From: an uncultured SAR86 cluster bacterium
GTDB lineage: Bacteria; Pseudomonadota; Gammaproteobacteria; Magnimaribacterales; D2472
Length of the DNA stretch: 35,651 bases
NCBI GenBank assembly: GCA_902516285.1
Contig: CABXXT010000001.1
Coordinates: forward strand, 99,655 to 135,305
Direction of reading: 5' to 3'
In this document: positions 13,798 to 24,473 of the stretch, piece after piece
How the letters are laid out: each line of letters begins with the position of its first letter
How positions within the stretch are numbered: position 1 is the first letter of the stretch
Notes under the pieces: generated by a model
Databases searched by the model: none
What the model was told of the DNA's origin: nothing
What the model saw: the letters and a program-made list of their open reading frames with translations, nothing else
Translations under genes and position numbers: made by a program

Positions 13798-13834
13798 CAT
13801 ATCCACTCAATAAACTTTAAACTTTGTAACCCAT
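13798..13834 (+). repeat. att-like guaA core, outermost and most diverged copy
   Basis: CATATCCACTCAATA (13798-13812) matches the 20029 copy at 12 of 14 positions from 13799. ACCC begins at 13829, 30 bases after the repeat start, as in two other copies. Over 36 bases it matches the 15155 copy at 21 positions, so it is probably the oldest junction. Confidence 0.6.
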
Positions 13835-13863
13835 CCAATTCTGAGTTCTAATTGTGGAGCCTA

Positions 13864-13880
13864 ATATTTGTGTCATACGA
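13864..13880 (+). repeat. Arm motif copy (right half)
   Basis: ATTTGTGTCATACGA (13866-13880) is identical to the same 15 bases of the arm at 18123-18146. The left GTGTCA of the full arm is missing here. It lies 30 bases from the stop of the MFS gene. Confidence 0.65.
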
Positions 13881-13909
13881 TATGATTTTATAGCCACTGC
13901 GAAGACAGA

Positions 13910-15145
13910 TCAAATTTTTTCAGGCTCTTGAATTTGGCTTGCCAATATTACTGCGATTAGAGCAAAACATCCCATAATATTAAAAGCTACAAAGTAAGTA
14001 TCTTGAAAACCAATTAGAATACTTGTTATCAAAACTCCAATTGGTTGAAGCGGTGAAATAATCGGAGATGATATGCCTCTGGTTTTACCAAGATTATGTG
14101 CTCCAAAAGTTTTTAGAAAACTCGCAGTCATAAGAGGCATTGCTCCTCCAAAACCCAAACCAAATATGAATGCACTTAAAAGGAATATGCTTGTCTCACT
14201 GAAATAAGTTATTCCAAAGATACCAATTGCTTGAAGGAACATCGCTATCATTGAAGGATATGCAGCTTTCATAATATCAATGAGATATCCAAATGTTATT
14301 TTTCCTAAAACTCCACCAAAGGCAGATAATGCATAAGCAAAAACATATTGTTTGACTGGTAGACCTAAAAGATTCCAAGTTTCATCTAACCCCATCTTGC
14401 TTGCATGTATTGGTAAAAAGGTAAGTACGCCCATCATGGAGAGAAATTGAAATGCAAATGCAAAAGAAATTATCCAAAAAACTTTTTTTGATAAAAGATC
14501 TTTTGCAGTCATCTCCTGAGGTAAAGATTCTTCTTCATTATCTTTTTCAATACCATCTTTAACTTGGTTGACGGTCTTTGGGTTATCAATCACAGTAAAA
14601 AAAATAAGAGGCAAAATAATGAAAAGAATTACAGAAGCAAAAATTACATAAACGTTTCTCCATCCCACTAAGTCAAGAAGAGGATCAACAACCAAAGGAA
14701 GTACAACTCCTGAAAAGGAAATACCCACCGCTGAAATACCTAACGCTCTTCCAGCATTTTTATCAAACCAATTTGAAATTAATTTAGACACAGCTAAATT
14801 TCCCATCATAATAGATCCAAGAGCAAGAATGGTTAAATAAATCGTTAGAAGCGACCAATAAGAATTTATGAAGCTTAATAAGAAAAGTCCTGCAGCATAA
14901 ATTATAGCTCCGATCATCATAAAGTTTTTGACAGAGTACTTATCAAGGGCGCGACCTATAAGAATTGCCAAAATTGCAACAGGTATAAAATAGAGTGCGG
15001 TAATCATTCCAAGTTGACTTTCAGTCATGCCAAGCTCTGATATCAGATAAGGCCAGAAGATAGGGAAGCTATAAAAAAGGAAACCAATAACAGTGAATTC
15101 AACAGCAAGACCGGTAAATACCATTCTCCAACCAAAAAACTTCAT
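13910..15145 (-). CDS. MFS transporter (monocarboxylate/OFA-like), sole cargo of its cassette
   Basis: A 411-residue 12-helix major facilitator. FFGWRMVFTGLAVEFTVIG at the start, the loop GRALDKYSVKNFMMIG, SKLISNWFDKNAGRALG and GKITFGYLID in the second half fit the oxalate/formate antiporter-monocarboxylate type family. A charged loop with EKDNEEESLPQEM at about residues 195-210 links the two halves. The substrate is unknown. It is the only gene between the repeats at 13798 and 15155; its start lies only 9 bases from the 15155 core, leaving no room for its own promoter inside the cassette, so it may be read from upstream DNA. Confidence 0.9.
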   Translation of the reverse strand: MKFFGWRMVFTGLAVEFTVIGFLFYSFPIFWPYLISELGMTESQLGMITALYFIPVAILAILIGRALDKYSVKNFMMIGAIIYAAGLFLLSFINSYWSLLTIYLTILALGSIMMGNLAVSKLISNWFDKNAGRALGISAVGISFSGVVLPLVVDPLLDLVGWRNVYVIFASVILFIILPLIFFTVIDNPKTVNQVKDGIEKDNEEESLPQEMTAKDLLSKKVFWIISFAFAFQFLSMMGVLTFLPIHASKMGLDETWNLLGLPVKQYVFAYALSAFGGVLGKITFGYLIDIMKAAYPSMIAMFLQAIGIFGITYFSETSIFLLSAFIFGLGFGGAMPLMTASFLKTFGAHNLGKTRGISSPIISPLQPIGVLITSILIGFQDTYFVAFNIMGCFALIAVILASQIQEPEKI

Positions 15146-15154
15146 CTTTTATTT

Positions 15155-15190
15155 ATTCCCACTCTATAGAAGAGTGCCTCTGCAACCCTA
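15155..15190 (+). repeat. att-like guaA core copy with inverted core
   Basis: The first 13 bases (ATTCCCACTCTAT) are identical to the end of guaA at 22910-22922. Within it CACTCT-ATAGA-AGAGTG (15161-15177) is a perfect inverted repeat around 5 bases, the layout of a tyrosine-recombinase core. Over 36 bases it matches the 18065 copy at 30 positions, including the terminal ACCCTA. Confidence 0.75.
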
Positions 15191-15201
15191 TATTTAAAAA
15201 G

Positions 15202-15225
15202 GTGTGTCACATTTGTATCATACGA
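15202..15225 (+). repeat. Arm motif copy
   Basis: The 24-base element begins GTGTGTCACATTTG and ends ATCATACGA; it is identical to 18123-18146 except for one base. It holds GTGTCA and GTATCA 11 bases apart, one helical turn, like paired integrase arm sites. Confidence 0.7.
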
Positions 15226-15319
15226 CGATTTAAGCATTTCTTTTCATCTCCAATAACAGAAACATACTTTCAAGCTATTTATATGACATCTAAAAATTCT
15301 TAAATGCTTATGAATCCAA

Positions 15320-16042
15320 TTAAGTTCTTACAAAAAAAGCATCAAATTGTAGAAGCTGTCCAGTTATGGGATTTGAAAACCCAGTTTCCAAGTCATAAAG
15401 TTCAAATCCATTTTCTTTAAAAAAGTTAAAATAATGCTCAAACGTTTTGTCGCCCTCATACAATGAAACTAATGAACATTCTAATTTAACTGCATAAACC
15501 TTGCTCAGACTAAAAATCATCCCCATCAAAACCTGATCTTCATAGCCTTGAACATCAATTTTTAAAAGGCATTTATCATTTGCATTAAAATAATCATCGA
15601 AAATATTATCTACAGTAATAAGTTTTACGTTTTCAGAACCAATATAATTTGCTTCAGGAGCACATTCTTCATGAGTATCTTTCATTGACAAGATTGAGGA
15701 GCTAGCAGCGTCATTACCAGCTATGTTAATTACTGTTTCACTACATTTCTCGCCAACTGCTGTTCGCTCATGAATTGTCCAATTTGTATAGCTTTTTGCA
15801 TTTTTAAGTAATTTAGTATGAGCGCTATTTGTGGGTTCAAAGCTTACAATTTTTCCAGAGTAATTATGTTCTAAAAGTGAAGTTGCGAACTGTCCTTTAT
15901 TGGCGCCTATATCAAATACAAGATTTATTCCTAAACTTTCAACTGCTTTGACGTATCGTGGTCTAGATCTATCATAGAAACTCAGCTTTAGATTAAATAA
16001 CTTTAAGAACCATATAACTAATTTCTTAATTAGTACTTTCAT
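15320..16042 (-). CDS. FkbM family methyltransferase (1 of 3)
   Basis: A 240-residue SAM-dependent methyltransferase. DIGANKGQ (residues 44-51) is the SAM-binding motif I, followed by FEP at 68-70, which contacts the ribose, and KIDVQGYE at 161-168, the FkbM-domain signature. A hydrophobic, basic N-terminus (first 20 residues) could associate with membrane. FkbM-type enzymes O-methylate sugars and other hydroxyls, often in surface polysaccharide loci. It is separated from the next methyltransferase by 318 empty bases, unlike the tight 18-base gap between the other two. The stop is 95 bases from the arm at 15202-15225. Confidence 0.9.
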   Translation of the reverse strand: MKVLIKKLVIWFLKLFNLKLSFYDRSRPRYVKAVESLGINLVFDIGANKGQFATSLLEHNYSGKIVSFEPTNSAHTKLLKNAKSYTNWTIHERTAVGEKCSETVINIAGNDAASSSILSMKDTHEECAPEANYIGSENVKLITVDNIFDDYFNANDKCLLKIDVQGYEDQVLMGMIFSLSKVYAVKLECSLVSLYEGDKTFEHYFNFFKENGFELYDLETGFSNPITGQLLQFDAFFVRT

Positions 16043-16360
16043 AAAAACGTATAATTATCCCCATTATTAAGACTTTGACTGAACTAAATTTACATTATTA
16101 AATGCAAACATTATAACCCTATTAATAAACTAAATGCCTTATAAATTATTTCTACTCAATAATCATATTTTGAAAACATGTTTAACAGAGTTCTTTTCAA
16201 AGTAAATATTTAATTACTTCACTATTACAACATTTGCTATACGTTTCTTTGCATATATTTATATAAATATTCTTGTGGAACCATTATTTTAGTATTTCTT
16301 ATCTTCACTATGACATTAAATTATAAACAATGCTTAAGCTCAAACTTTAAATAAAAAAGA
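16043..16360. other. Gene-free stretch between methyltransferase genes
   Basis: No open frame of note, RNA gene or terminator is visible in these 318 very AT-rich bases. It contains an AT-only 16-base palindrome (16255-16270) and a weak resemblance to the repeat core (CTACTCAATAAT near 16149), neither strong enough to call. It must supply the promoter for the 15320-16042 gene if that gene is transcribed independently. Confidence 0.6.
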
Positions 16361-17122
16361 TTATTCATTTACTACAAGTTTATAATCAGGATAATTTTTG
16401 TTATTAGGCATATCTAACTCATGAGGTAATTTAAAGTCGTAAGAAACATCACTGTATTTGGAAAAGGTTAGTTCTAATACTAAAGGCAAATCATCATCTT
16501 CTCTAATTGGTGAAAAATTATTGGCATGAACATGTACTAAATTTAAAGTAAATTGATTTATAAACTCTTCAATTTCTTTAAGATGTATATCGACATCATG
16601 CAATTCAATTACCATGCCAGTAATTCTATCTTCACATGCAATAATGTCATTTAAAAAACGGTATTCAGAACCTTCTATATCAATTTTAAAAAAAATATTT
16701 TTACTTTCTGTTACTTTTAACACACTCATAAATGTACAGTGTTGACTGCTTTCAGTATTTAAGCCTACAAATTTTTGGATATGATGAACGTTGGGTTGTG
16801 AGAAAAATTTATTATATTTTACAAGCACAGTAATCCAGTGCACAAAAATTTTCAAATTATCAATCCTTATTAAAGATTTAATAAGTTTTTTGAAAAAATA
16901 TTTTTTGCTCACACTCGCATCATATGCATATACACATACTTTTTTACAACTTAAGAAATCTTCTTCGAAACTCCAATCATCATTTATACCTAAACCTATG
17001 AGTATTTCTGATTTTTCGATGTCGGATTGCGAAACGAGATAACCGCCATCATATTTTTTTCCAATCCTCACTAAATCCGTTGCTTGCTCTACTGAAAAAA
17101 AATTTGGTAAGTGTGCTTTCAT
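16361..17122 (-). CDS. FkbM-like methyltransferase (2 of 3), divergent
   Basis: A 253-residue protein with LIGLGINDDWSFE at about residues 41-53, taking the place of motif I, and FKIDIEGSEYRFL at 145-157, the FkbM-type signature, then VIELHDVD and VHVHANNFSP. A basic, hydrophobic insert at about 70-105 separates the first two. The pattern fits the more divergent FkbM/Methyltransf_21 group seen in glycan loci; its acceptor is unknown. It is 18 bases downstream of the third methyltransferase and likely co-transcribed with it. Confidence 0.8.
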   Translation of the reverse strand: MKAHLPNFFSVEQATDLVRIGKKYDGGYLVSQSDIEKSEILIGLGINDDWSFEEDFLSCKKVCVYAYDASVSKKYFFKKLIKSLIRIDNLKIFVHWITVLVKYNKFFSQPNVHHIQKFVGLNTESSQHCTFMSVLKVTESKNIFFKIDIEGSEYRFLNDIIACEDRITGMVIELHDVDIHLKEIEEFINQFTLNLVHVHANNFSPIREDDDLPLVLELTFSKYSDVSYDFKLPHELDMPNNKNYPDYKLVVNE

Positions 17123-17140
17123 AACTTTCTATACTTTAAA

Positions 17141-17992
17141 CTAATGGGTATAGTTTATAAGTTTATTTGATTTTGTGAAAAGAAAATTATGCACTCCGAG
17201 CGTGTCAACATTGGTAAATGGAATCTTTTTAACTTCAGATAATTCAACTTTTCGCATTTTGTTACCTATTGTGTATCCAACATAGCCGAAGGAATAAATA
17301 AGTTCGAATGTTTCAACTAATTTTGGATTAATTATTGTGCTCTCTGGTTGATGTTCATTTACGCAAATCTCAATGAGAAAATCATTATTTGTATCTGAAT
17401 TTAACAAAGAAATTGCGCCTTTGAGACATCCCAATTCTGCGCCTTCTATGTCAATCATTACAAAGCACCTCTTGTCCTCAGTTAAAGGCAAGGCAGTTGA
17501 ATCGAATGATGATATTGGAACAAGAGTACTGCTTATTTGTCCAGCCCAACCCTTTACAAGGGAAGCTCCTGTGCTTGCACCATACAATGGAAGTACTCCG
17601 AGTTTGTCACTTAGGGCAATTGGGAATAATTGGAAATCAGCATCAAAGTTATTTGCTTCAATGTTGCGAAGCAAGATATTGATATTTAACTGGTTAGGTT
17701 CGAATGCGATTGTACTTATGCCTTTTTTAAGTGCTTTGCATACATAGTATCCAGTATTTGCACCAATATTAATGAATACGTCATAATTATCAATAATTTT
17801 TTCAAATATGTTAGTTTCATCAGGTTCAAATTCTCCCTCTTCCATAGCACTCATGCCATTAAAGAAGAAGCCAAGTTTTTCTCTAAAAAGCACTTCACTT
17901 CTTAAGATTTTGGCATCACGCGAATAACGATAGTAGTTTGCGACACTTGGAAATTTTTCTACTATTGGCTTTAGAAAACGAAATAAACTCAT
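17141..17992 (-). CDS. FkbM family methyltransferase (3 of 3)
   Basis: A 283-residue SAM-dependent methyltransferase with NIGANTGYY at residues 75-83 (motif I), AFEPN at 96-100 and MIDIEGAE at 179-186. The N-terminal 70 residues (including FREKLGFFFNGMSAMEEGEFEPDE) are an extension often seen in FkbM enzymes of polysaccharide clusters. It is the gene nearest the 18065 repeat and reads away from it. Three different FkbM-type genes in one 2.9 kb segment suggest methyl decoration of a surface glycan (inference). Confidence 0.9.
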   Translation of the reverse strand: MSLFRFLKPIVEKFPSVANYYRYSRDAKILRSEVLFREKLGFFFNGMSAMEEGEFEPDETNIFEKIIDNYDVFINIGANTGYYVCKALKKGISTIAFEPNQLNINILLRNIEANNFDADFQLFPIALSDKLGVLPLYGASTGASLVKGWAGQISSTLVPISSFDSTALPLTEDKRCFVMIDIEGAELGCLKGAISLLNSDTNNDFLIEICVNEHQPESTIINPKLVETFELIYSFGYVGYTIGNKMRKVELSEVKKIPFTNVDTLGVHNFLFTKSNKLINYTH

Positions 17993-18064
17993 CTTTTCTT
18001 CAATATATTAATATGCATATTATCTAATCAGTGTAGCATTTCTTCTGTTATCTGGCTTATTATT

Positions 18065-18100
18065 ACTCCCACTCAATAGTAGAATGCATCTGAAACCCTA
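18065..18100 (+). repeat. att-like guaA core copy
   Basis: The first 20 bases match the 20029 copy at 19 positions and the 36-base unit matches 15155 at 30. It ends ACCCTACTA with the surrounding bases, which also occurs inside guaA at 22957-22965, so similarity to guaA may extend beyond the terminal 13 bases. Confidence 0.75.
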
Positions 18101-18118
18101 CTATTAGTAGTGTTTCAG
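18090..18118. repeat. 29-base imperfect palindrome inside the att-like site
   Basis: CTGAAAC and GTTTCAG enclose TACTA/TAGTA arms; only one base pair and the central base fail to match. There is no T-tract on either side, so it is not a standard terminator. It lies between the core and the arm. Confidence 0.6.
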
Positions 18119-18122
18119 AATA

Positions 18123-18146
18123 GTGTGTCACATTTGTGTCATACGA
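18123..18146 (+). repeat. Arm motif, best copy
   Basis: It contains GTGTCA twice, 11 bases apart (18125 and 18136), joined by CATTT and followed by TACGA. Found also at 15202 (23 of 24 bases) and 13866 (15 of 15), and in part at 22811. It is 17 bases from the stop of the reductase gene. Confidence 0.75.
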
Positions 18147-18163
18147 ATTATTTATATGCCCTT

Positions 18164-18769
18164 TCATAAACTTCTCGCAAATTTCCTTACTTTTTGCATG
18201 TTCTTTTCAAAGTCAACTTTTTTCATATTAGGAAGTACTGAATAAAATCTTAAATACTTTGTCTTTAATCCTCCAGATTGAAATATTGATTTTTTCAATC
18301 TTCTGTATGGAATATTATCAAAGAAAGAAAAGTTAAAATAACTTACCATTGGTCCACCATAAGTCATTGAAACAATCCCAATTTTACCCTTCAATGCTCC
18401 TGCAACTGGATATCCATAATTGCCAAAAAACTTACTATCAGGTAGAAGCGATTTATAAGTGAAGAACCATGTTGGATGAAGGACCCAATCAATCCAGTTT
18501 TCTAGAATTACATTCATTCTTAGATTATGACAAGCACTCATTAAAAACATTACATCAGCATTTTCAAGTCTTTTTCTGTAATCCATCACTAATTGAGGGG
18601 GAGGATTAATATCACTTCTGTAAAAGGGAAGTTGTTCTTTTTCCTCAAAAAGGTTAATCAAATCAATTTCATGTCCAACTTTTTCTGCTTCTTCAATGAA
18701 AGTATCTCTTACAGCAGCATTAAATGAATCTTTGGTATTAAAGTGACCATAAACAATGCATATTTTCAT
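18164..18769 (-). CDS. NAD(P)H-dependent oxidoreductase, flavodoxin-2 fold
   Basis: A 201-residue protein resembling the NAD(P)H:quinone oxidoreductase/KefF family. KICIVYGHFNTKDSFNAAV at the N-terminus is the flavin phosphate-binding strand-loop, DLINLFEE follows, and ADVMFLMSACHNLRMNVILE near 90-110 with WVLHPTWFFTY is the usual quinone-pocket region. GKIGIVSMTYGGP near 140-155 fits the third flavin loop. The electron acceptor is unknown. It is the last minus-strand gene before the arm and core at 18065-18146, downstream of two lipoproteins. Confidence 0.85.
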   Translation of the reverse strand: MKICIVYGHFNTKDSFNAAVRDTFIEEAEKVGHEIDLINLFEEKEQLPFYRSDINPPPQLVMDYRKRLENADVMFLMSACHNLRMNVILENWIDWVLHPTWFFTYKSLLPDSKFFGNYGYPVAGALKGKIGIVSMTYGGPMVSYFNFSFFDNIPYRRLKKSIFQSGGLKTKYLRFYSVLPNMKKVDFEKNMQKVRKFARSL

Positions 18770-18883
18770 TTTGTTATCTCTTCTTAATAAGAATAAAGTA
18801 ATAACAGTCTATCATTTCTTTTTTATGAAAGTTAAACATGTTTACGCATTAAAATCGTTATAGGATTTAAGAATGGAATTTTA

Positions 18884-19405
18884 TTAGTTTAAGAACCAAT
18901 CTGCTTTATATCTTGATCGTGGATTATCTTTAATGTAGAAGAATCCTTCTTCAGAAAGATGAAATTCTTTATAACAATTCAATTTTCTTCCAGCAAATTC
19001 ACTCTCCGCAGATTTTACTACCATAAAAAAAAATGTTTCATATTCTGGAAAATCTTTAGTACTAAATGCAAACTCGTCCCCAGTACAGTTGTAAACTTCA
19101 TCACCCAGTGCTTTGAGAAAGGCAAATATTTTATTTTCACCTTCAACTAAATCAAAGACTTGTACCTCTTGGTCACGCATATATCTTTCAGTTTCATTCA
19201 CTCTCACGAAATGCCATAGTCCATCCTGAATGTTTGAAAAAACAAATACTTTTCCTTTTCTTAATTCAGAATCGTTGAGTTGATCTAAAATTATTTGAGC
19301 ATTGCCCTCTTTTTCAATATCACTCTGAATAAAAAGATTGTCATACTCCATCGAACTGCAAGAAAAAAAGAAGATTAAGATAGATAGAATGTATGTGTAT
19401 TTCAT
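18884..19405 (-). CDS. Small lipoprotein, paralogue of the upstream lipoprotein
   Basis: A 173-residue predicted lipoprotein: hydrophobic core then FFSC with Cys16. No named family is recognised. The mature part aligns clearly with the protein at 19411: LRKGKVFVFSN here against LKKGKIFVFSN there, VQVFDL against TQIFDL, and a shared C...FSTKDFPEYETFFF against C...FNTEMFPEVETYYF pattern, then LNCYKEFHLSE against FTCFKDFEVTE. A conserved pair of cysteines suggests a disulfide. It is 5 bases downstream of its paralogue. Function unknown. Confidence 0.8.
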   Translation of the reverse strand: MKYTYILSILIFFFSCSSMEYDNLFIQSDIEKEGNAQIILDQLNDSELRKGKVFVFSNIQDGLWHFVRVNETERYMRDQEVQVFDLVEGENKIFAFLKALGDEVYNCTGDEFAFSTKDFPEYETFFFMVVKSAESEFAGRKLNCYKEFHLSEEGFFYIKDNPRSRYKADWFLN

Positions 19406-19410
19406 AATAC

Positions 19411-19917
19411 TCAGAATATTAAACTGTTAATAAAACTTTTACTTAAGTTCTGCAAAAATTCACTACCACCGTTTCTTGGATTGTTTATTTGTTCAAGGAA
19501 TGCCTTCTCAGTTACTTCAAAATCTTTGAAGCATGTGAATGTGCGAATAGTGCTATCAAACCCTTGCTGAATTACAAAATAATAAGTCTCCACCTCAGGA
19601 AACATCTCTGTATTAAAAGTGTATGGTTGCTTATCACAATTACTGGACTCACCAGTTGAAACTCTCCCTAAGTTTTTGACACTATTTTGCCCATCTTTCA
19701 AATCAAAAATTTGAGTTTCTGTATGTTTTATTTTTCGCACTTCTCCATTAACTCTAATATTCATTGGAAGAGGATCCATATGATTTGAAAAAACAAATAT
19801 TTTTCCTTTTTTTAATTCAGGATCAAAAAGTTCTGGAATTACTTGTCTTTGGTCAACAACAGTAGTTGCGCATGATGATATTAAAAAAAAGGTTAATATT
19901 AATCTAATGATGTTCAA
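19411..19917 (-). CDS. Small lipoprotein, paralogue of the downstream lipoprotein
   Basis: A 168-residue predicted lipoprotein with ISSC lipobox, Cys16, followed by a short soluble domain. It carries the same motif series as its neighbour (LKKGKIFVFSN, TQIFDLKDG, FNTEMFPEVETYYFV, FTCFKDFEVTE), which points to a local duplication. After the shared domain it has a distinct tail that ends in FINSLIF. Not recognised beyond a possible surface or periplasmic role. The gene starts about 110 bases from the 20029 repeat; there is no arm motif between. Confidence 0.8.
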   Translation of the reverse strand: MNIIRLILTFFLISSCATTVVDQRQVIPELFDPELKKGKIFVFSNHMDPLPMNIRVNGEVRKIKHTETQIFDLKDGQNSVKNLGRVSTGESSNCDKQPYTFNTEMFPEVETYYFVIQQGFDSTIRTFTCFKDFEVTEKAFLEQINNPRNGGSEFLQNLSKSFINSLIF

Positions 19918-20028
19918 TTATATTTCCTGTGAAAAGTGGTCTGTAAGAATACTTTATTATCGCAAAAAATTCTTATTAGAAAAACATTAATTTCATAAAT
20001 AAAAAATATACAAAAAATTTATATTTTT

Positions 20029-20048
20029 ATTCCCACTCAATAGTAGAA
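20029..20048 (+). repeat. att-like guaA core copy without adjacent arm
   Basis: ATTCCCACTCAATAGTAGAA matches 18065-18084 at 19 of 20 positions and shares ATTCCCACTC with guaA. Unlike the other three copies it lacks ACCC at +30 and lacks an arm motif to its right, so this junction differs in structure. Confidence 0.75.
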
Positions 20049-20165
20049 AATAGTCAAAAAATCCCCATATAAATAAGTGTAAAGAAAGAAATATATTCCT
20101 TATTTCAGATTCCATTACTCACATCAACATACCTAATTTTGGGTGTGTTTTTTATGGAGAAAAAT

Positions 20166-20468
20166 ATGCAAGTATTTAAATGTGAAATTACTAATCCCAA
20201 AGGAAAGATCAATCATAATGTTCATTGCGATTGGGACGATCAAGGTAACCTACATTTTTGTGAACACGATCTTGGAGATGGTGTAAAAGAATTTTGGGGG
20301 ACTGACGAATATGAATACTTTATGATGATCCCTCAAAAGCATGTTGCAAAGTTTATTCTTTGTTCTTTTTGGAAAGGGTTTACTTTTGAAGGGAGATTTA
20401 CAGTTGGAGAGTTAAGAGAATTATGTGATGAATATGAAATTGAATATCAAACTGATTTCTGGATGTAA
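20166..20468 (+). CDS. Unknown 100-residue acidic protein, the only plus-strand gene of the array
   Basis: Starts are possible at a TTG (20139), ATG (20154) or ATG (20166). The last is preferred because GGAGA (20156-20160) lies 5 bases ahead of it. The protein is acidic and aromatic-rich, with CDWDDQGNLHFCEHDLGDG near residues 20-38, EFWGTDEYEYFMMI near 41-55 and LRELCDEYEIEY near the end. Several Cys/His residues in the first third could bind metal, but no known motif is formed. No family is recognised. It opens the cassette next to the 20029 repeat and converges on the HNH nuclease gene, suggesting its own promoter and possibly a role tied to the restriction pair (inference). Confidence 0.7.
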   Translation: MQVFKCEITNPKGKINHNVHCDWDDQGNLHFCEHDLGDGVKEFWGTDEYEYFMMIPQKHVAKFILCSFWKGFTFEGRFTVGELRELCDEYEIEYQTDFWM

Positions 20469-20626
20469 AAACTTTTTATGTAGCGAGAACAAATGTCATT
20501 AAAAAATAGGAAAGACTGAAATTTTTATTTCAAGAAATATCATAAAGGATATTGGGAATATTATAATGATGAGTTCTTAGGACACCATCTTTATTATTCT
20601 TATATTTTAAAATCAATGAAGCAACG

Positions 20627-21712
20627 CTATTTGTTTGATTTCCTTCTATTACAACCCTTGCATAAAATTTGGCAATTTTCTTCTGAAGTTTTTCCACCGG
20701 ATGACCATGGGTCAATGTGATCAGCATCCATCGCTGAAATATCAAATTCTTTTTTACATGAATTACATTTTCCATTTTGTTTTTCATAAACTCTTTGTTT
20801 TTCTTGGGGGGTAAACGATCTAATACTAAGAAATTTCTCATTTCTTGTTAATACATATTGATATATTCCACTCATCTTGGTTATATCTTCATCTTGGATA
20901 AGAATTGAAAGTTCTTCTTCAATTTTCTGAGGATCTAGTGATGTATTTTTAAATTCATTATAAAGTTCTCCCCAAGGAACGTTCTTCATAAACTTTTTTC
21001 TCTTTACTGTAAAAATAGATTCAATCCAAGAGATCAAACTTTGGTAGTAACTCCATAAGTTATGAGCAGTGGGTTCATGCTGATGCTTTGCCATATAATC
21101 ATCTATATTATTATTGCTTACCCATTTAATAGTTTTCTCTAAAAAATCTTGTCGTATTGGACTACCGGTAATATAGTCGTTACCCATATCATATGCAGGA
21201 CATCCAGATTTACTGAAGTATTTTTTTGCATCAGTTACCCAAGTTCCGTGATATACAGCATTTCTCATCTCTTGTGATGTTAATTTCTCACCTGCAATAT
21301 TAATTATCCTAAACCAATCTAGTTTGTCACTAGCATCACCGCTGCAAAGATAAATTAAGAGTTTGTACTCTAAAATTTCTTTTTTTTCGTTGTCTTGAAG
21401 ATTTGACCAATATTTTTTTTCATATGAAAAATCACCATTAATATATTGGCATATAGAGATTGTTCTTTGCTGACCATCCATCACTTCAAAGTTACCATCA
21501 TCTCTGACTGCCCAATACATTACATTTAATGGAAAGTTTTTTTTAACAGTTGAAATTACTGCTTCTCTTTGTTTTCCTGAGTAGATAAATTCTCTCTGAT
21601 AAGGTGGTCTTATATCTAATTTTCCTCCGTAACCAGTAACCCCATCTTCATTATTATCTTGGTATTTATTAACTAAGTCCTCGATTGTTATTTCATGTGG
21701 TTCAATCTTCAT
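20627..21712 (-). CDS. DUF262-HNH restriction-type nuclease
   Basis: A 361-residue two-domain protein. The N-terminal DUF262 (ParB-like/GmrS-related) domain shows RPPYQRE at residues 35-41 and the nucleotide-handling DGQQRT at 79-84. The C-terminus is an HNH nuclease with CNSC at 316-319, the catalytic DADHIDPW at 329-336, and C351/C354 closing the zinc site. Such DUF262-HNH proteins occur in GmrSD-type and other modification-linked defence systems. Its ATG overlaps the methylase stop by 4 bases (ATGA), implying translational coupling. With the methylase it is probably the nuclease half of a compact restriction-modification system. Confidence 0.9.
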   Translation of the reverse strand: MKIEPHEITIEDLVNKYQDNNEDGVTGYGGKLDIRPPYQREFIYSGKQREAVISTVKKNFPLNVMYWAVRDDGNFEVMDGQQRTISICQYINGDFSYEKKYWSNLQDNEKKEILEYKLLIYLCSGDASDKLDWFRIINIAGEKLTSQEMRNAVYHGTWVTDAKKYFSKSGCPAYDMGNDYITGSPIRQDFLEKTIKWVSNNNIDDYMAKHQHEPTAHNLWSYYQSLISWIESIFTVKRKKFMKNVPWGELYNEFKNTSLDPQKIEEELSILIQDEDITKMSGIYQYVLTRNEKFLSIRSFTPQEKQRVYEKQNGKCNSCKKEFDISAMDADHIDPWSSGGKTSEENCQILCKGCNRRKSNK

Positions 21713-22764
21713 AATCTTTTATTCCTAATAATAATCCTAGCATAGGGAACCACAACTTCGTCATTATTCATAATATATAAGTCTCCATCTACAGCACCTC
21801 TTTTTTGAACTTCCTTGCGATATTTTTTGTGTTCTGGTTTATATGGGGATACTCCTATTTCTTTACCAGAATTTGAAATACCAAGACCTATAATTTCAAA
21901 TTGATCAGGGTTAAATTTATTTAAAAATGTAATTGGTACTCCCATTGCGCCTTTGTAATCAACAGGAATATCTTTAGTTTTATTAACATTGATTGCATCA
22001 TAATTCTCATATTTTAAGTATTCTTCATCAGAATATTTTTTATACAAAATTAAATCTTCATGTCTTTTTTCAATATCTAGATTAGTAAACCATGTCACTC
22101 CAGAGACTCTTATCATTCCATCTTTTTTGTCACTGGCAGTTGCATAATTTTCATATGATGAATTTATAAAATGTGCAGCACCTCCTTTAAAACCATAACC
22201 CAACCACACTTTATTTTTAACAATTAATTTAAAAATTTCTTTGTAGGTGATTGCATTTTGATGTCCAATAATTAAAAAATCCTTTTTATAATTTATTAAC
22301 TGTTCCACGTATTCTCTGAAAAGTGAAAAAGGAGGATTGGTAACAACAATATCACATTGTTTAAGCAAATCTATACATTCATTGGATCTAAAGTCACCAT
22401 CTTCTTTGAGGTGTTGAACTCCTATTTCATCAATATCTGGAATTTTATTATTATTTTTATCTCCCTCGTAAATTAAATATATTGCTTTATCAGATTTATT
22501 TTGACTAAATAAATCAATTTCTTGATTCTTGTAACATACTGCAATTAATTTTTTTAAACCTAATTCCTCAAATTGGTAAGAAAAATAGTGAAAAAAATTA
22601 CTCATTCTAGGATCATCACAATTACATAATACTGTTTTGTTTTTGAAGTGATCTTTATAATGTTTTAATTCATTTTCAATATCCTCTAATCTAGTATAAA
22701 ACTCATCTTTCTTATTTTTTTTTGCACCATGAAGATTTTTATTTGAATTATTATTTTTTGCCAT
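21709..22764 (-). CDS. Adenine-specific DNA methyltransferase, EcoRI type
   Basis: A 351-residue methylase from the ATG at 22764; a TTG at 22797 would add 11 residues but gives an atypical N-terminus. KKDEFYTRLEDIENELKHY near residues 18-36 and CNCDDPR at 47-53 are characteristic of the EcoRI methylase family, and TNPPFSLF at 142-149 is the catalytic N6-adenine motif. It should methylate adenine within a short recognition site and protect host DNA from the coupled nuclease. The recognition site cannot be read from sequence. It is the cargo closest to guaA and so, under the serial insertion model, the most recently acquired. Confidence 0.9.
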   Translation of the reverse strand: MAKNNNSNKNLHGAKKNKKDEFYTRLEDIENELKHYKDHFKNKTVLCNCDDPRMSNFFHYFSYQFEELGLKKLIAVCYKNQEIDLFSQNKSDKAIYLIYEGDKNNNKIPDIDEIGVQHLKEDGDFRSNECIDLLKQCDIVVTNPPFSLFREYVEQLINYKKDFLIIGHQNAITYKEIFKLIVKNKVWLGYGFKGGAAHFINSSYENYATASDKKDGMIRVSGVTWFTNLDIEKRHEDLILYKKYSDEEYLKYENYDAINVNKTKDIPVDYKGAMGVPITFLNKFNPDQFEIIGLGISNSGKEIGVSPYKPEHKKYRKEVQKRGAVDGDLYIMNNDEVVVPYARIIIRNKRL

Positions 22765-22810
22765 TAAAAAAGTATGCCATAAACATATGACTTTCAATAG
22801 TTATCTTAAA

Positions 22811-22881
22811 GTGTCAGATTTGTGTTTTTTAGGTCTTCGAAGTCTGCATTCCTTCATTGAAGTGACGAATTGTGTCGCACG
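22811..22881 (+). repeat. Arm-like sequences on the guaA side of the last cassette
   Basis: GTGTCAGATTTGTGT (22811-22825) matches the arm at 18125 at 14 of 15 positions, and a weaker relative, ATTGTGTCGCACG (22869-22881), follows. They lie between the methylase start and the guaA stop, i.e. on the opposite side of the core from the other three arms. Confidence 0.55.
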
Positions 22882-22907
22882 TAAACTACTGATATAAAGT
22901 GTTTATT

Positions 22908-24473
22908 TCATTCCCACTCTATTGTTGCAGGAGGCTTGCTTGAAATGTCATAGACAACCCTACTAACATCTTCTATTTCATTAACTATTCTATTCGATAC
23001 AAGTTCTAGAAAATCGTAAGGTAGATGCGCCCAATTAGCAGTCATAAAATCTACAGTTTCTACTGCTCTTAATCCTATTACTTCTGCATATCGTCTTTCA
23101 TCTCCTACAACACCAACAGACTTAACTGGAAGAAGAACAGCAAAAGCTTGAGAGACTTGATCATACAAATCAGCCTTGATTAGTTCTTCAATAAATATAC
23201 TATCTGCTTCTTGAAGAATAAGAGTTTTATCTTTTGTAACCTCTCCTAATATCCTTACACCAAGACCTGGACCTGGAAATGGATGCCTATTTATCATTTC
23301 TTCAGGTAAGCCTAATTCAATTCCCATTCTTCTTACTTCATCTTTGAACAAGTCTCTTAGTGGCTCTACTAAGTCTAATTTCATCTCTTCTGGAAGGCCT
23401 CCAACATTATGATGTGATTTAATCACTCGTGCCTCATTCGATTCCGAACCTGATGACTCAATTACATCTGGATAAATAGTTCCTTGAGCAAGATATTTAA
23501 TATCTTTTAATTTTGCTGCCTCAGAATCAAAAACATCTATAAATGTTCTACCAATAATCTTTCTTTTTTGCTCAGGATCTGTTTCACCTTTTAAATGTCT
23601 TAAAAAAATATCAGCACTCTCAGATTTAATAACATTTAAATTCATATTATCTTTAAAGGTCTTCATAACAGAGTTAGCTTCTCCTTTTCTAAGTAACCCA
23701 TTATTCACAAAGACGCATACGAGATTTTTATCAATAGCCTTATGAAGTAATGCCGCGGTTACAGAAGAGTCAACACCTCCTGAGAGGCCTAATAAAACTT
23801 TTTCATCTCCAACTTGTTTTTTTATGTCATCAAGCCTACTTGAAATAAGATCATCCATCTTCCAATCAGTTTTAGCATTACATATATCAAATAAAAAATT
23901 TCTAAGAATATCTTTACCGTTTTCTGTATGAGTAACTTCTGGATGGAATTGAATACCATAAATAGGCAGACTCTTGTGTTCCATGGCTGCTATAGGTGCA
24001 GTTGATGTTGAGGCAGCTAAATTAAAATCCTCTGGTAGGTCTTGAACTTGATCACCATGACTCATCCAAACATTAATATTTTTATTTAAATTATGAAATA
24101 ATTTCGACTCATTTATTAGTTCAAGCTCTGCGTGTCCAAATTCTTTTTGATCTGCAGATATTACTGAGCCTCCCATTTGCTCAGCCAAAGTTTGCATTCC
24201 ATAACAAATACCAAGCACAGGTATATTTAAATCAAATACTATTTTAGGTGCTCGTGGTGTATAACTTTTTGTAACTGAATTTGGTCCACCAGATAAAATA
24301 ATTCCAACTGGTTTTACCTCTTTTATTTTATCCTCTGAAATATCCCATGGCAGTATCACTGAATATACATCATTTTCTCTGACTCTTCTGGCTATAAGTT
24401 GGGTATATTGTGATCCAAAGTCTAAAACAAGAATAGTATCTATTTTTTTATCAGTTACTGAGAGTTTGGTCAT
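22908..24473 (-). CDS. guaA: GMP synthase (glutamine-hydrolysing)
   Basis: A 521-residue, full-length GMP synthase that aminates XMP to GMP with ATP and glutamine. The class I amidotransferase domain has GICYGMQ with nucleophile Cys90 and [10 protein letters not shown] holding the His/Glu pair. The synthetase domain carries the PP-loop [12 protein letters not shown] and the dimerisation part [14 protein letters not shown], and the protein ends PPATIEWE. The gene's last 13 coding-strand bases plus stop form the core repeated downstream at four places, yet the gene is intact. It follows guaB by 4 bases. Weak SD (GAGA) only. Confidence 0.99.
22910..22922 (+). repeat. Genuine guaA 3'-end core (presumed attB/att junction)
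   Basis: ATTCCCACTCTAT on the plus strand is the complement of the codons for Ile-Glu-Trp-Glu plus the first stop base. It is identical over 13 bases to 15155-15167. Coding constraint keeps it conserved, which suits it as an integration target. Confidence 0.75.

What the first reader, a model, noticed from the sequence alone, without database searches (positions are those of the whole stretch)
13864..22881. Conserved arm motif with two GTGTCA repeats one helical turn apart
A 24-base element at 15202-15225 and 18123-18146 differs by a single base; 15 of its bases recur exactly at 13866 and 14 of 15 at 22811. The motif has GTGTCA twice, 11 bases apart, the layout of paired arm sites bound by tyrosine integrases. 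It lies next to noncoding cassette ends and is not part of any gene.
Basis: seen in the sequence. Interest (0 to 1): 0.6.

Follow-up and report, generated by a model that had tools for sequence, protein, structure and literature searches.

The report
Mobile gene cassettes behind guaA, SAR86
The repeated motif is the landing gear of small mobile gene cassettes that pile up one behind another at the end of the guaA gene in SAR86 ocean bacteria, nearly all without an integrase gene of their own, which suggests that one of the ocean's most streamlined bacterial groups shares genes through a docking site served by helper integrases.

Summary
In the 81%-complete own genome the motif occurs only in this guaA array, always beside a copy of the guaA 3' end (core GAGTGGGA). 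Across the SAR86 order, guaA is followed by 0-4 short cassettes (median 1.2 kb), all in guaA orientation, typically ending in: arm pair, ~45-nt spacer, guaA-like core. Of 95 distinct cassette ends, 49 carry a 7-base tandem repeat of period exactly 11 (controls 0). At least eight arm specificities occur. 39% of cassettes with far arms carry the same arm at the near end (14% when shuffled). A 556-bp cassette is 94-100% identical across four families whose guaA tails are 63-71% identical, so cassettes move. Of 203 genomes only three carry a guaA-type integrase, each directly behind guaA; one has an attachment end 92% identical to that of an integrase-less cassette. Many cassettes have no inner arms and lock a gene start codon onto guaA's stop codon. 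Closest known: CIMEs, and the GIsul2 integrase moving the integrase-less CR2-sul2 unit at guaA. I call it a new variant of a known kind. Mobilisation in trans and expression through guaA are inferred, not shown.

The parts
22908..24473 (-). guaA (GMP synthetase), anchor gene; its last codons ...TIEWE* form the attachment core
22911..22925 (-). core 0, guaA 3' end: ACAATAGAGTGGGAA (guaA sense)
22862..22881 (+). near-end (guaA-side) arm GTGACGAATTGTGTCGCACG, conserved in other family-A elements (G004, G015, G029, G086)
22811..22825 (+). near-end arm GTGTCAGATTTGTGT
20045..22910 (-). cassette C1, 2.9 kb: EcoRI-type adenine methyltransferase (21709-22797), type II restriction endonuclease with GmrSD_N + HNH (20627-21712), small ORF (20139-20468,+). 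Absent from G014, where guaA joins C2 directly
20030..20044 (-). core 1: ACTATTGAGTGGGAA; no recognisable arm pair beside it
18081..20029 (-). cassette C2: two lipoprotein-like genes (19411-19917, 18884-19405) and a flavodoxin-fold reductase (18164-18769)
18125..18146 (+). far-end paired arm site: GTGTCA x2, 11 bases apart
18089..18119 (+). inverted repeat TCTGAAAC...GTTTCAGA between arms and core (role unknown)
18066..18080 (-). core 2: ACTATTGAGTGGGAG
15171..18065 (-). cassette C3: three FkbM-type methyltransferases (17141-17992, 16361-17122, 15320-16042); the middle one is below Pfam's cut-off
15204..15225 (+). far-end paired arm site (GTGTCA / GTATCA); spacer to core 11 nt shorter than at 18066, one helical turn
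15156..15170 (-). core 3: TCTATAGAGTGGGAA
13815..15155 (-). cassette C4: MFS transporter (13910-15145), start codon 10 nt past the core
13859..13880 (+). decayed far-end arm site (one of the two repeats kept)
13800..13814 (-). core 4, decayed: TTTATTGAGTGGATA

Best explanation
The motif is the paired arm site of an attachment (att) site. Small mobile cassettes insert at the 3' end of guaA by recombination within the GAGTGGGA stretch. Each insertion leaves a guaA-like core, so cassettes pile up in tandem in guaA orientation. The far end of a typical cassette is: two arm repeats 11 bp apart, a ~45-nt spacer, core. Some cassettes also carry matching arm repeats on the guaA side. A tyrosine integrase of a guaA-specific family would bind the arm pair with its N-terminal domain and cut at the core. 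The integrase is encoded by rare fuller elements at the same site, so most cassettes are non-autonomous and would be moved in trans, or in cis after accretion. Cassettes without inner arms place a gene start on guaA's stop codon and would be expressed with guaA. Shown: anatomy, periodicity, arm matching, recent transfer between families, location of the integrases, shared att end. Inferred: arm binding, trans mobilisation, translational coupling.
For: Far-end tandem repeats with period 11 in 49 of 95 distinct ends, almost none at other periods, 0 in control stretches; exact 8-mers start at -70 to -77 in 34 of 35. The near end shares the arm 7-mer in 18 of 46 cassettes, shuffled mean 6.5, maximum 14 in 2000. 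In 55 family loci: 21 with at least one extra core, 0 minus-oriented cores within 8.5 kb, 1 core from 8.5 to 20 kb. A cassette 94-100% identical over ~556 bp where guaA tails are 63-71% identical. Insertion difference: G000 guaA-C1-core-C2 against G014 guaA-C2. guaA-type integrases in 3 of 203 order genomes, all directly behind guaA; relatives in other Gammaproteobacteria (G261, G465, G529) also directly behind guaA. Att end of the G166 integrase element identical at 119/130 and 96/108 positions to ends without integrase in G021 and G030. Start codon at -1 (14x) or +4 (15x) after the core in 191 flanks. Literature: the GIsul2 integrase recombines GAGTGGGA at guaA, moves the integrase-less CR2-sul2 unit, and attR recombines with attB (PMC9376610).
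Against: No excised circle or binding experiment exists. The integrase for this window's own arm type was not found in SAR86 genomes or in IMG/VR. C1 lacks far arms and C2-C4 lack inner arms, so parts of this array may be decayed. Only about half of far ends show a 7-mer repeat. One-armed sites are unusual in the lambda picture. G000 is 81% complete, so a resident integrase could be missed.
Confidence: 0.82

Rival explanations
1. The arrays are graveyards: ordinary integrative elements inserted at guaA, lost integrase and transfer genes (CIMEs), and accreted. The arms are fossil att sites with no present mobility.
For: Most cassettes lack an integrase; the 13800 core and 13859 arms are decayed and C1 has no far arms; tandem accretion of CIMEs is well known (PMC5704250).
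Against: Near-identical cassettes across four families; arms and cores intact in many genera; start codons locked to the core suggest reuse rather than random decay.
Confidence: 0.3
2. An integron-like system: promoterless genes each followed by one recombination site, captured by an integrase at an anchor site (guaA in place of attI).
For: Gene followed by site, uniform orientation, start codons at -1/+4 after the core, tandem arrays.
Against: No integron integrase gene seen; the sites are duplex-type arm + core with near-identical guaA cores, not folded attC; many cassettes have att ends on both sides with matching arms.
Confidence: 0.12
3. The motif is a transcription-factor site or terminator-associated element of the downstream genes.
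For: Palindromic flavour (TGACACAAATGTGACACA), intergenic position, inverted repeats beside it.
Against: Only three copies in the genome, all beside cores; position fixed relative to the core, not to genes; the sequence changes between cassettes while the 11-bp period stays; no Rfam match.
Confidence: 0.03

Closest known systems
CIMEs (cis-mobilizable elements) and site-specific accretion
   Same: Integrase-less units kept between att sites and stacked in tandem at the 3' end of a gene (PMC5704250).
   Different: Here gene-sized (median 1.2 kb), order-wide, with at least eight arm types in one site, often without inner arms and with a gene start fused to the anchor gene's stop codon; no conjugation genes identified.
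GIsul2 / CR2-sul2 unit at guaA
   Same: Insertion at the 3' end of guaA, core GAGTGGGA, integrase moves an integrase-less unit, attR x attB integration; GIsul2 also carries a resolvase gene resG (PMC9376610).
   Different: GIsul2 is ~15 kb with transfer genes; homology of its integrase to the SAR86 integrases was not tested; no arrays of many cassettes described there.
Tycheposons of marine bacteria
   Same: Cargo-carrying integrative elements of streamlined marine bacteria.
   Different: Tycheposons are 4-200 kb, tRNA-bordered and carry a tyrosine recombinase (as cited in PMC10872708); these are gene-sized, at guaA, without recombinase.
Integrons
   Same: Tandem promoterless gene-plus-site cassettes behind an anchor, one orientation.
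   Different: No intI seen; the core matches the guaA end and arm pairs stand where attC folding would be expected.
Lambda-type attP of tyrosine integrases
   Same: Short direct-repeat arm sites about one helical turn apart, spacer, core, arms on both sides in complete elements (general knowledge).
   Different: Same core with many interchangeable arm specificities; one-armed variants common.

Membership tests
Integrative element att site of a tyrosine integrase | duplicated core matching the 3' end of the target gene | tested here: met
Integrative element att site of a tyrosine integrase | arm repeats flanking the core at fixed distance and helical phase | tested here: met
Integrative element att site of a tyrosine integrase | a tyrosine integrase gene is found at this target | tested here: met
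   In G107, G124, G166; not in the window
Integrative element att site of a tyrosine integrase | integrase binds the arms and recombines the core | not testable with these tools
   needs biochemistry
CIME | flanked by att sites, no integrase gene | tested here: met
   Matching att ends in 18 of 46 cassettes; integrase search of arrays
CIME | derived from an ICE/IME and mobilised in cis by one | tested here: inconclusive
   Shared att end with an integrase element; no conjugation genes identified; no transfer test
Integron | integron integrase gene beside the array | tested here: not met
   Only two Xer-sized recombinases in the 81%-complete G000; none in arrays except the guaA-type integrases
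Integron | attC sites | not tested
   No dedicated attC model was run; ends differ in plan (arms + guaA core)
GIsul2 family | integrase homologous to GIsul2 Int | not tested
   No GIsul2 sequence was fetched; phage and plasmid searches gave no close relative
Tycheposon | tRNA-bordered, 4-200 kb, own tyrosine recombinase | tested here: not met
   No tRNA in the window, guaA target, median 1.2 kb

The most novel reading that the evidence does not exclude
SAR86 has an order-wide, integron-like gene-exchange system without an integron: guaA is a shared dock into which promoterless, gene-sized cassettes are inserted so that their start codon abuts guaA's stop codon. Integrases with different arm specificities but one core specificity, supplied by rare elements, write and reshuffle the array.
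Probability: 0.4. Interest if true: 0.88.

Novelty: new variant of a known kind. Interest (0 to 1): 0.74.

Why it matters
SAR86 is among the most abundant and most streamlined heterotrophs of the surface ocean (general knowledge), and the papers searched here describe no cassette system for it. A docking site that admits defence genes (restriction-modification in this window, NucS/MrcB-like and Schlafen-like genes elsewhere) and surface-modification genes (FkbM methyltransferases, acyltransferases) offers a concrete route for gene exchange between distant SAR86 families. It also provides a natural set of att sites in which arm sequence varies while period, spacing and core stay fixed, useful for studying arm recognition by tyrosine integrases.

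Tried and rejected
Exact window motif and two other arm types in IMG/VR: none; a looser GTTACA pattern gave 18 contigs, none with a guaA core nearby. guaA core in IMG/VR: 16 contigs, several of them guaA 3' ends of other bacteria, no SAR86-like array. Integrase in phage, plasmid and viral collections: no close relative. Rfam on the window: nothing. Inverted repeat in the spacer: enriched (39% of ends with stem score 6 or more against 8% shuffled) but pairing and position vary; role left open. Transcription-factor reading rejected.

Full report
1. What is in the window. The window is SAR86: an exact-pattern scan returned five contigs, four named SAR86 and one a gammaproteobacterial MAG. guaA is at 22908-24473 on the minus strand. 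Leftwards, copies of its 3' end (guaA sense AC(T/A)AT(T/A)GAGTGGGA) stand at 22911, 20030, 18066, 15156 and, decayed, 13800. They divide the stretch into four cassettes: C1, an EcoRI-type methyltransferase with a type II restriction endonuclease; C2, two lipoprotein-like genes and a flavodoxin-fold reductase; C3, three FkbM-type methyltransferases; C4, an MFS transporter. Nearly all cassette genes are on the guaA strand; one small ORF (20139-20468) is not.

2. The observation. Coordinates and identities hold. Shuffles predict 0.02 matches to the 22-base pattern; three are found. In the 1.08-Mb own assembly there are no others. In the genus, 8 further genomes have a match: seven beside a guaA-type core, one a 3-mismatch chance match in a gene.

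3. The general anatomy. Regions downstream of guaA were fetched for 60 genomes of the family and about 40 loci of three other families of the order; the latter were picked because they matched the core, so they are not an unbiased sample. In the 55 family loci with at least 3 kb of sequence, 21 carry at least one further core within 8.5 kb, none in reverse orientation, and one core lies between 8.5 and 20 kb. Of 95 distinct far ends, 49 have an exact 7-mer tandem repeat of period 11 between -100 and -35; other periods give 0-2, and control stretches give 0 at period 11. Exact 8-mers start at -70 to -77 in 34 of 35 cases. The repeat sequence differs between cassettes (TGACACA, GTTACAAA, GTTACAC, TTGTAAAC, TTGTAAAG, TGACAAAC, ACTACACA, AACTAAG and others). 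In 18 of 46 cassettes with far arms the near end holds the same 7-mer; shuffling near ends gives 6.5 on average and at most 14. In the window the 15156 site has a spacer 11 nt shorter than the 18066 site, one helical turn.

4. Mobility. In G014 guaA is joined directly to a homologue of C2 (90.5% identical); in the window C1 sits between them, bounded by cores. A 556-bp cassette occurs behind guaA in six genomes of four families: 94-100% identical in 14 of 15 pairs (89% in one pair where more bases were aligned), while the adjacent 400 bp of guaA are 63-71% identical except in one within-genus pair (84%). Two other cassettes are 98.5% and 99.8% identical where guaA is 77% and 81%.

5. The integrase. 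The own genome has only two tyrosine recombinases, both of Xer size (298-299 codons), and a search of the fetched array regions found none in the cassettes except in two elements. A relative search over 203 genomes of the order gave three integrases, in G107, G124 and G166, each starting about 130-220 nt after the guaA core, with arm repeats between core and gene. In G107 and G124 a serine resolvase gene overlaps the integrase stop. Relatives outside the order in G261, G465 and G529 also lie directly behind guaA; two other good relatives (G566, G314) and the weaker ones showed no guaA core in the roughly 1.5 kb of flank held, so guaA specificity is shown for part of the wider family only. The near end of the G166 element is identical at 119 of 130 aligned bases to a cassette end in G021 and 96 of 108 to that of an integrase-less cassette in G030. 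That G030 cassette carries an acyltransferase and related arms at both ends, and G030 has only two PF00589 matches.

6. Two kinds of cassette. Some have arms on both sides. Others have no inner arms: of 191 distinct right flanks of cores, 79 have an ATG-started ORF of at least 80 codons within 60 nt (random positions 18%), with peaks at -1 (14 cases, ATG overlapping the stop as ATGA) and +4 (15 cases, TAAnATG), spread over about twenty different genes; immediate starts and near arms almost exclude each other (4 of 42 against 75 of 149). I infer translational coupling to guaA. How one-armed cassettes recombine is not shown; in GIsul2, attR recombined with attB and attLR with attR (PMC9376610), which makes it plausible.

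7. Filing. The thing works like a set of tyrosine-integrase att sites with non-autonomous cargo. It meets the CIME features of att ends without integrase, but origin from a conjugative element was not shown. It fails the integron and tycheposon definitions where tested. In the open-access library I found no description of guaA cassettes in SAR86; most subscription journals and bioRxiv preprints are not held, so novelty is provisional.

8. Limits. Some counts include related genomes; the shuffles do not correct for relatedness.

Noticed in passing
L212-L214, L216, L222 (genus g5), just after gene family F64: A second docking site far from guaA whose core is preceded by a relic of the guaA tail (e.g. 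IIYDSSSKPMVTIEWE*), with its own cassettes in L212 and L222.
   Followed up: partly
L217, L218: Further isolated cores outside guaA whose upstream reads like a worn guaA tail (YEIFSKLPETIEWE, PSKLPTTIEWE).
   Followed up: no
L108 (G104), L094 (G071), L096 (G058), L088 (G090): Partial second copies of the guaA 3' end (about 29-136 codons, some with stops) downstream of guaA, as if elements carried a longer guaA tail.
   Followed up: no
L256:759-2683 and L259:815-2655 (guaA orientation): Integrase and serine resolvase genes overlap by 4 bases in both elements; L259 also has a small protein with an HCHC stretch reminiscent of HUH Rep proteins, without a Pfam match.
   Followed up: partly
window 20139-20468 and L087:18088-18417: The same small ORF (family F103) occurs in two family-A cassettes, in both cases opposite to guaA.
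   Followed up: no
L158, L159, L161: Very short tyrosine recombinases (191-211 codons, catalytic domain only) elsewhere in SAR86 genomes.
   Followed up: no
L173, L178 (IMG/VR contigs of 108 and 203 kb): A guaA-like core ACTATTGAGTGGGAGTAA about 50 nt behind a GTTAGAAACTTGTTAGAAA repeat in two large viral contigs; may be chance or an attP.
   Followed up: no
far-end spacers, e.g. window 18089-18119: Inverted repeat (AAACCC...GGGTTT type) between arms and core, enriched over shuffles but with changing sequence; role unknown.
   Followed up: partly
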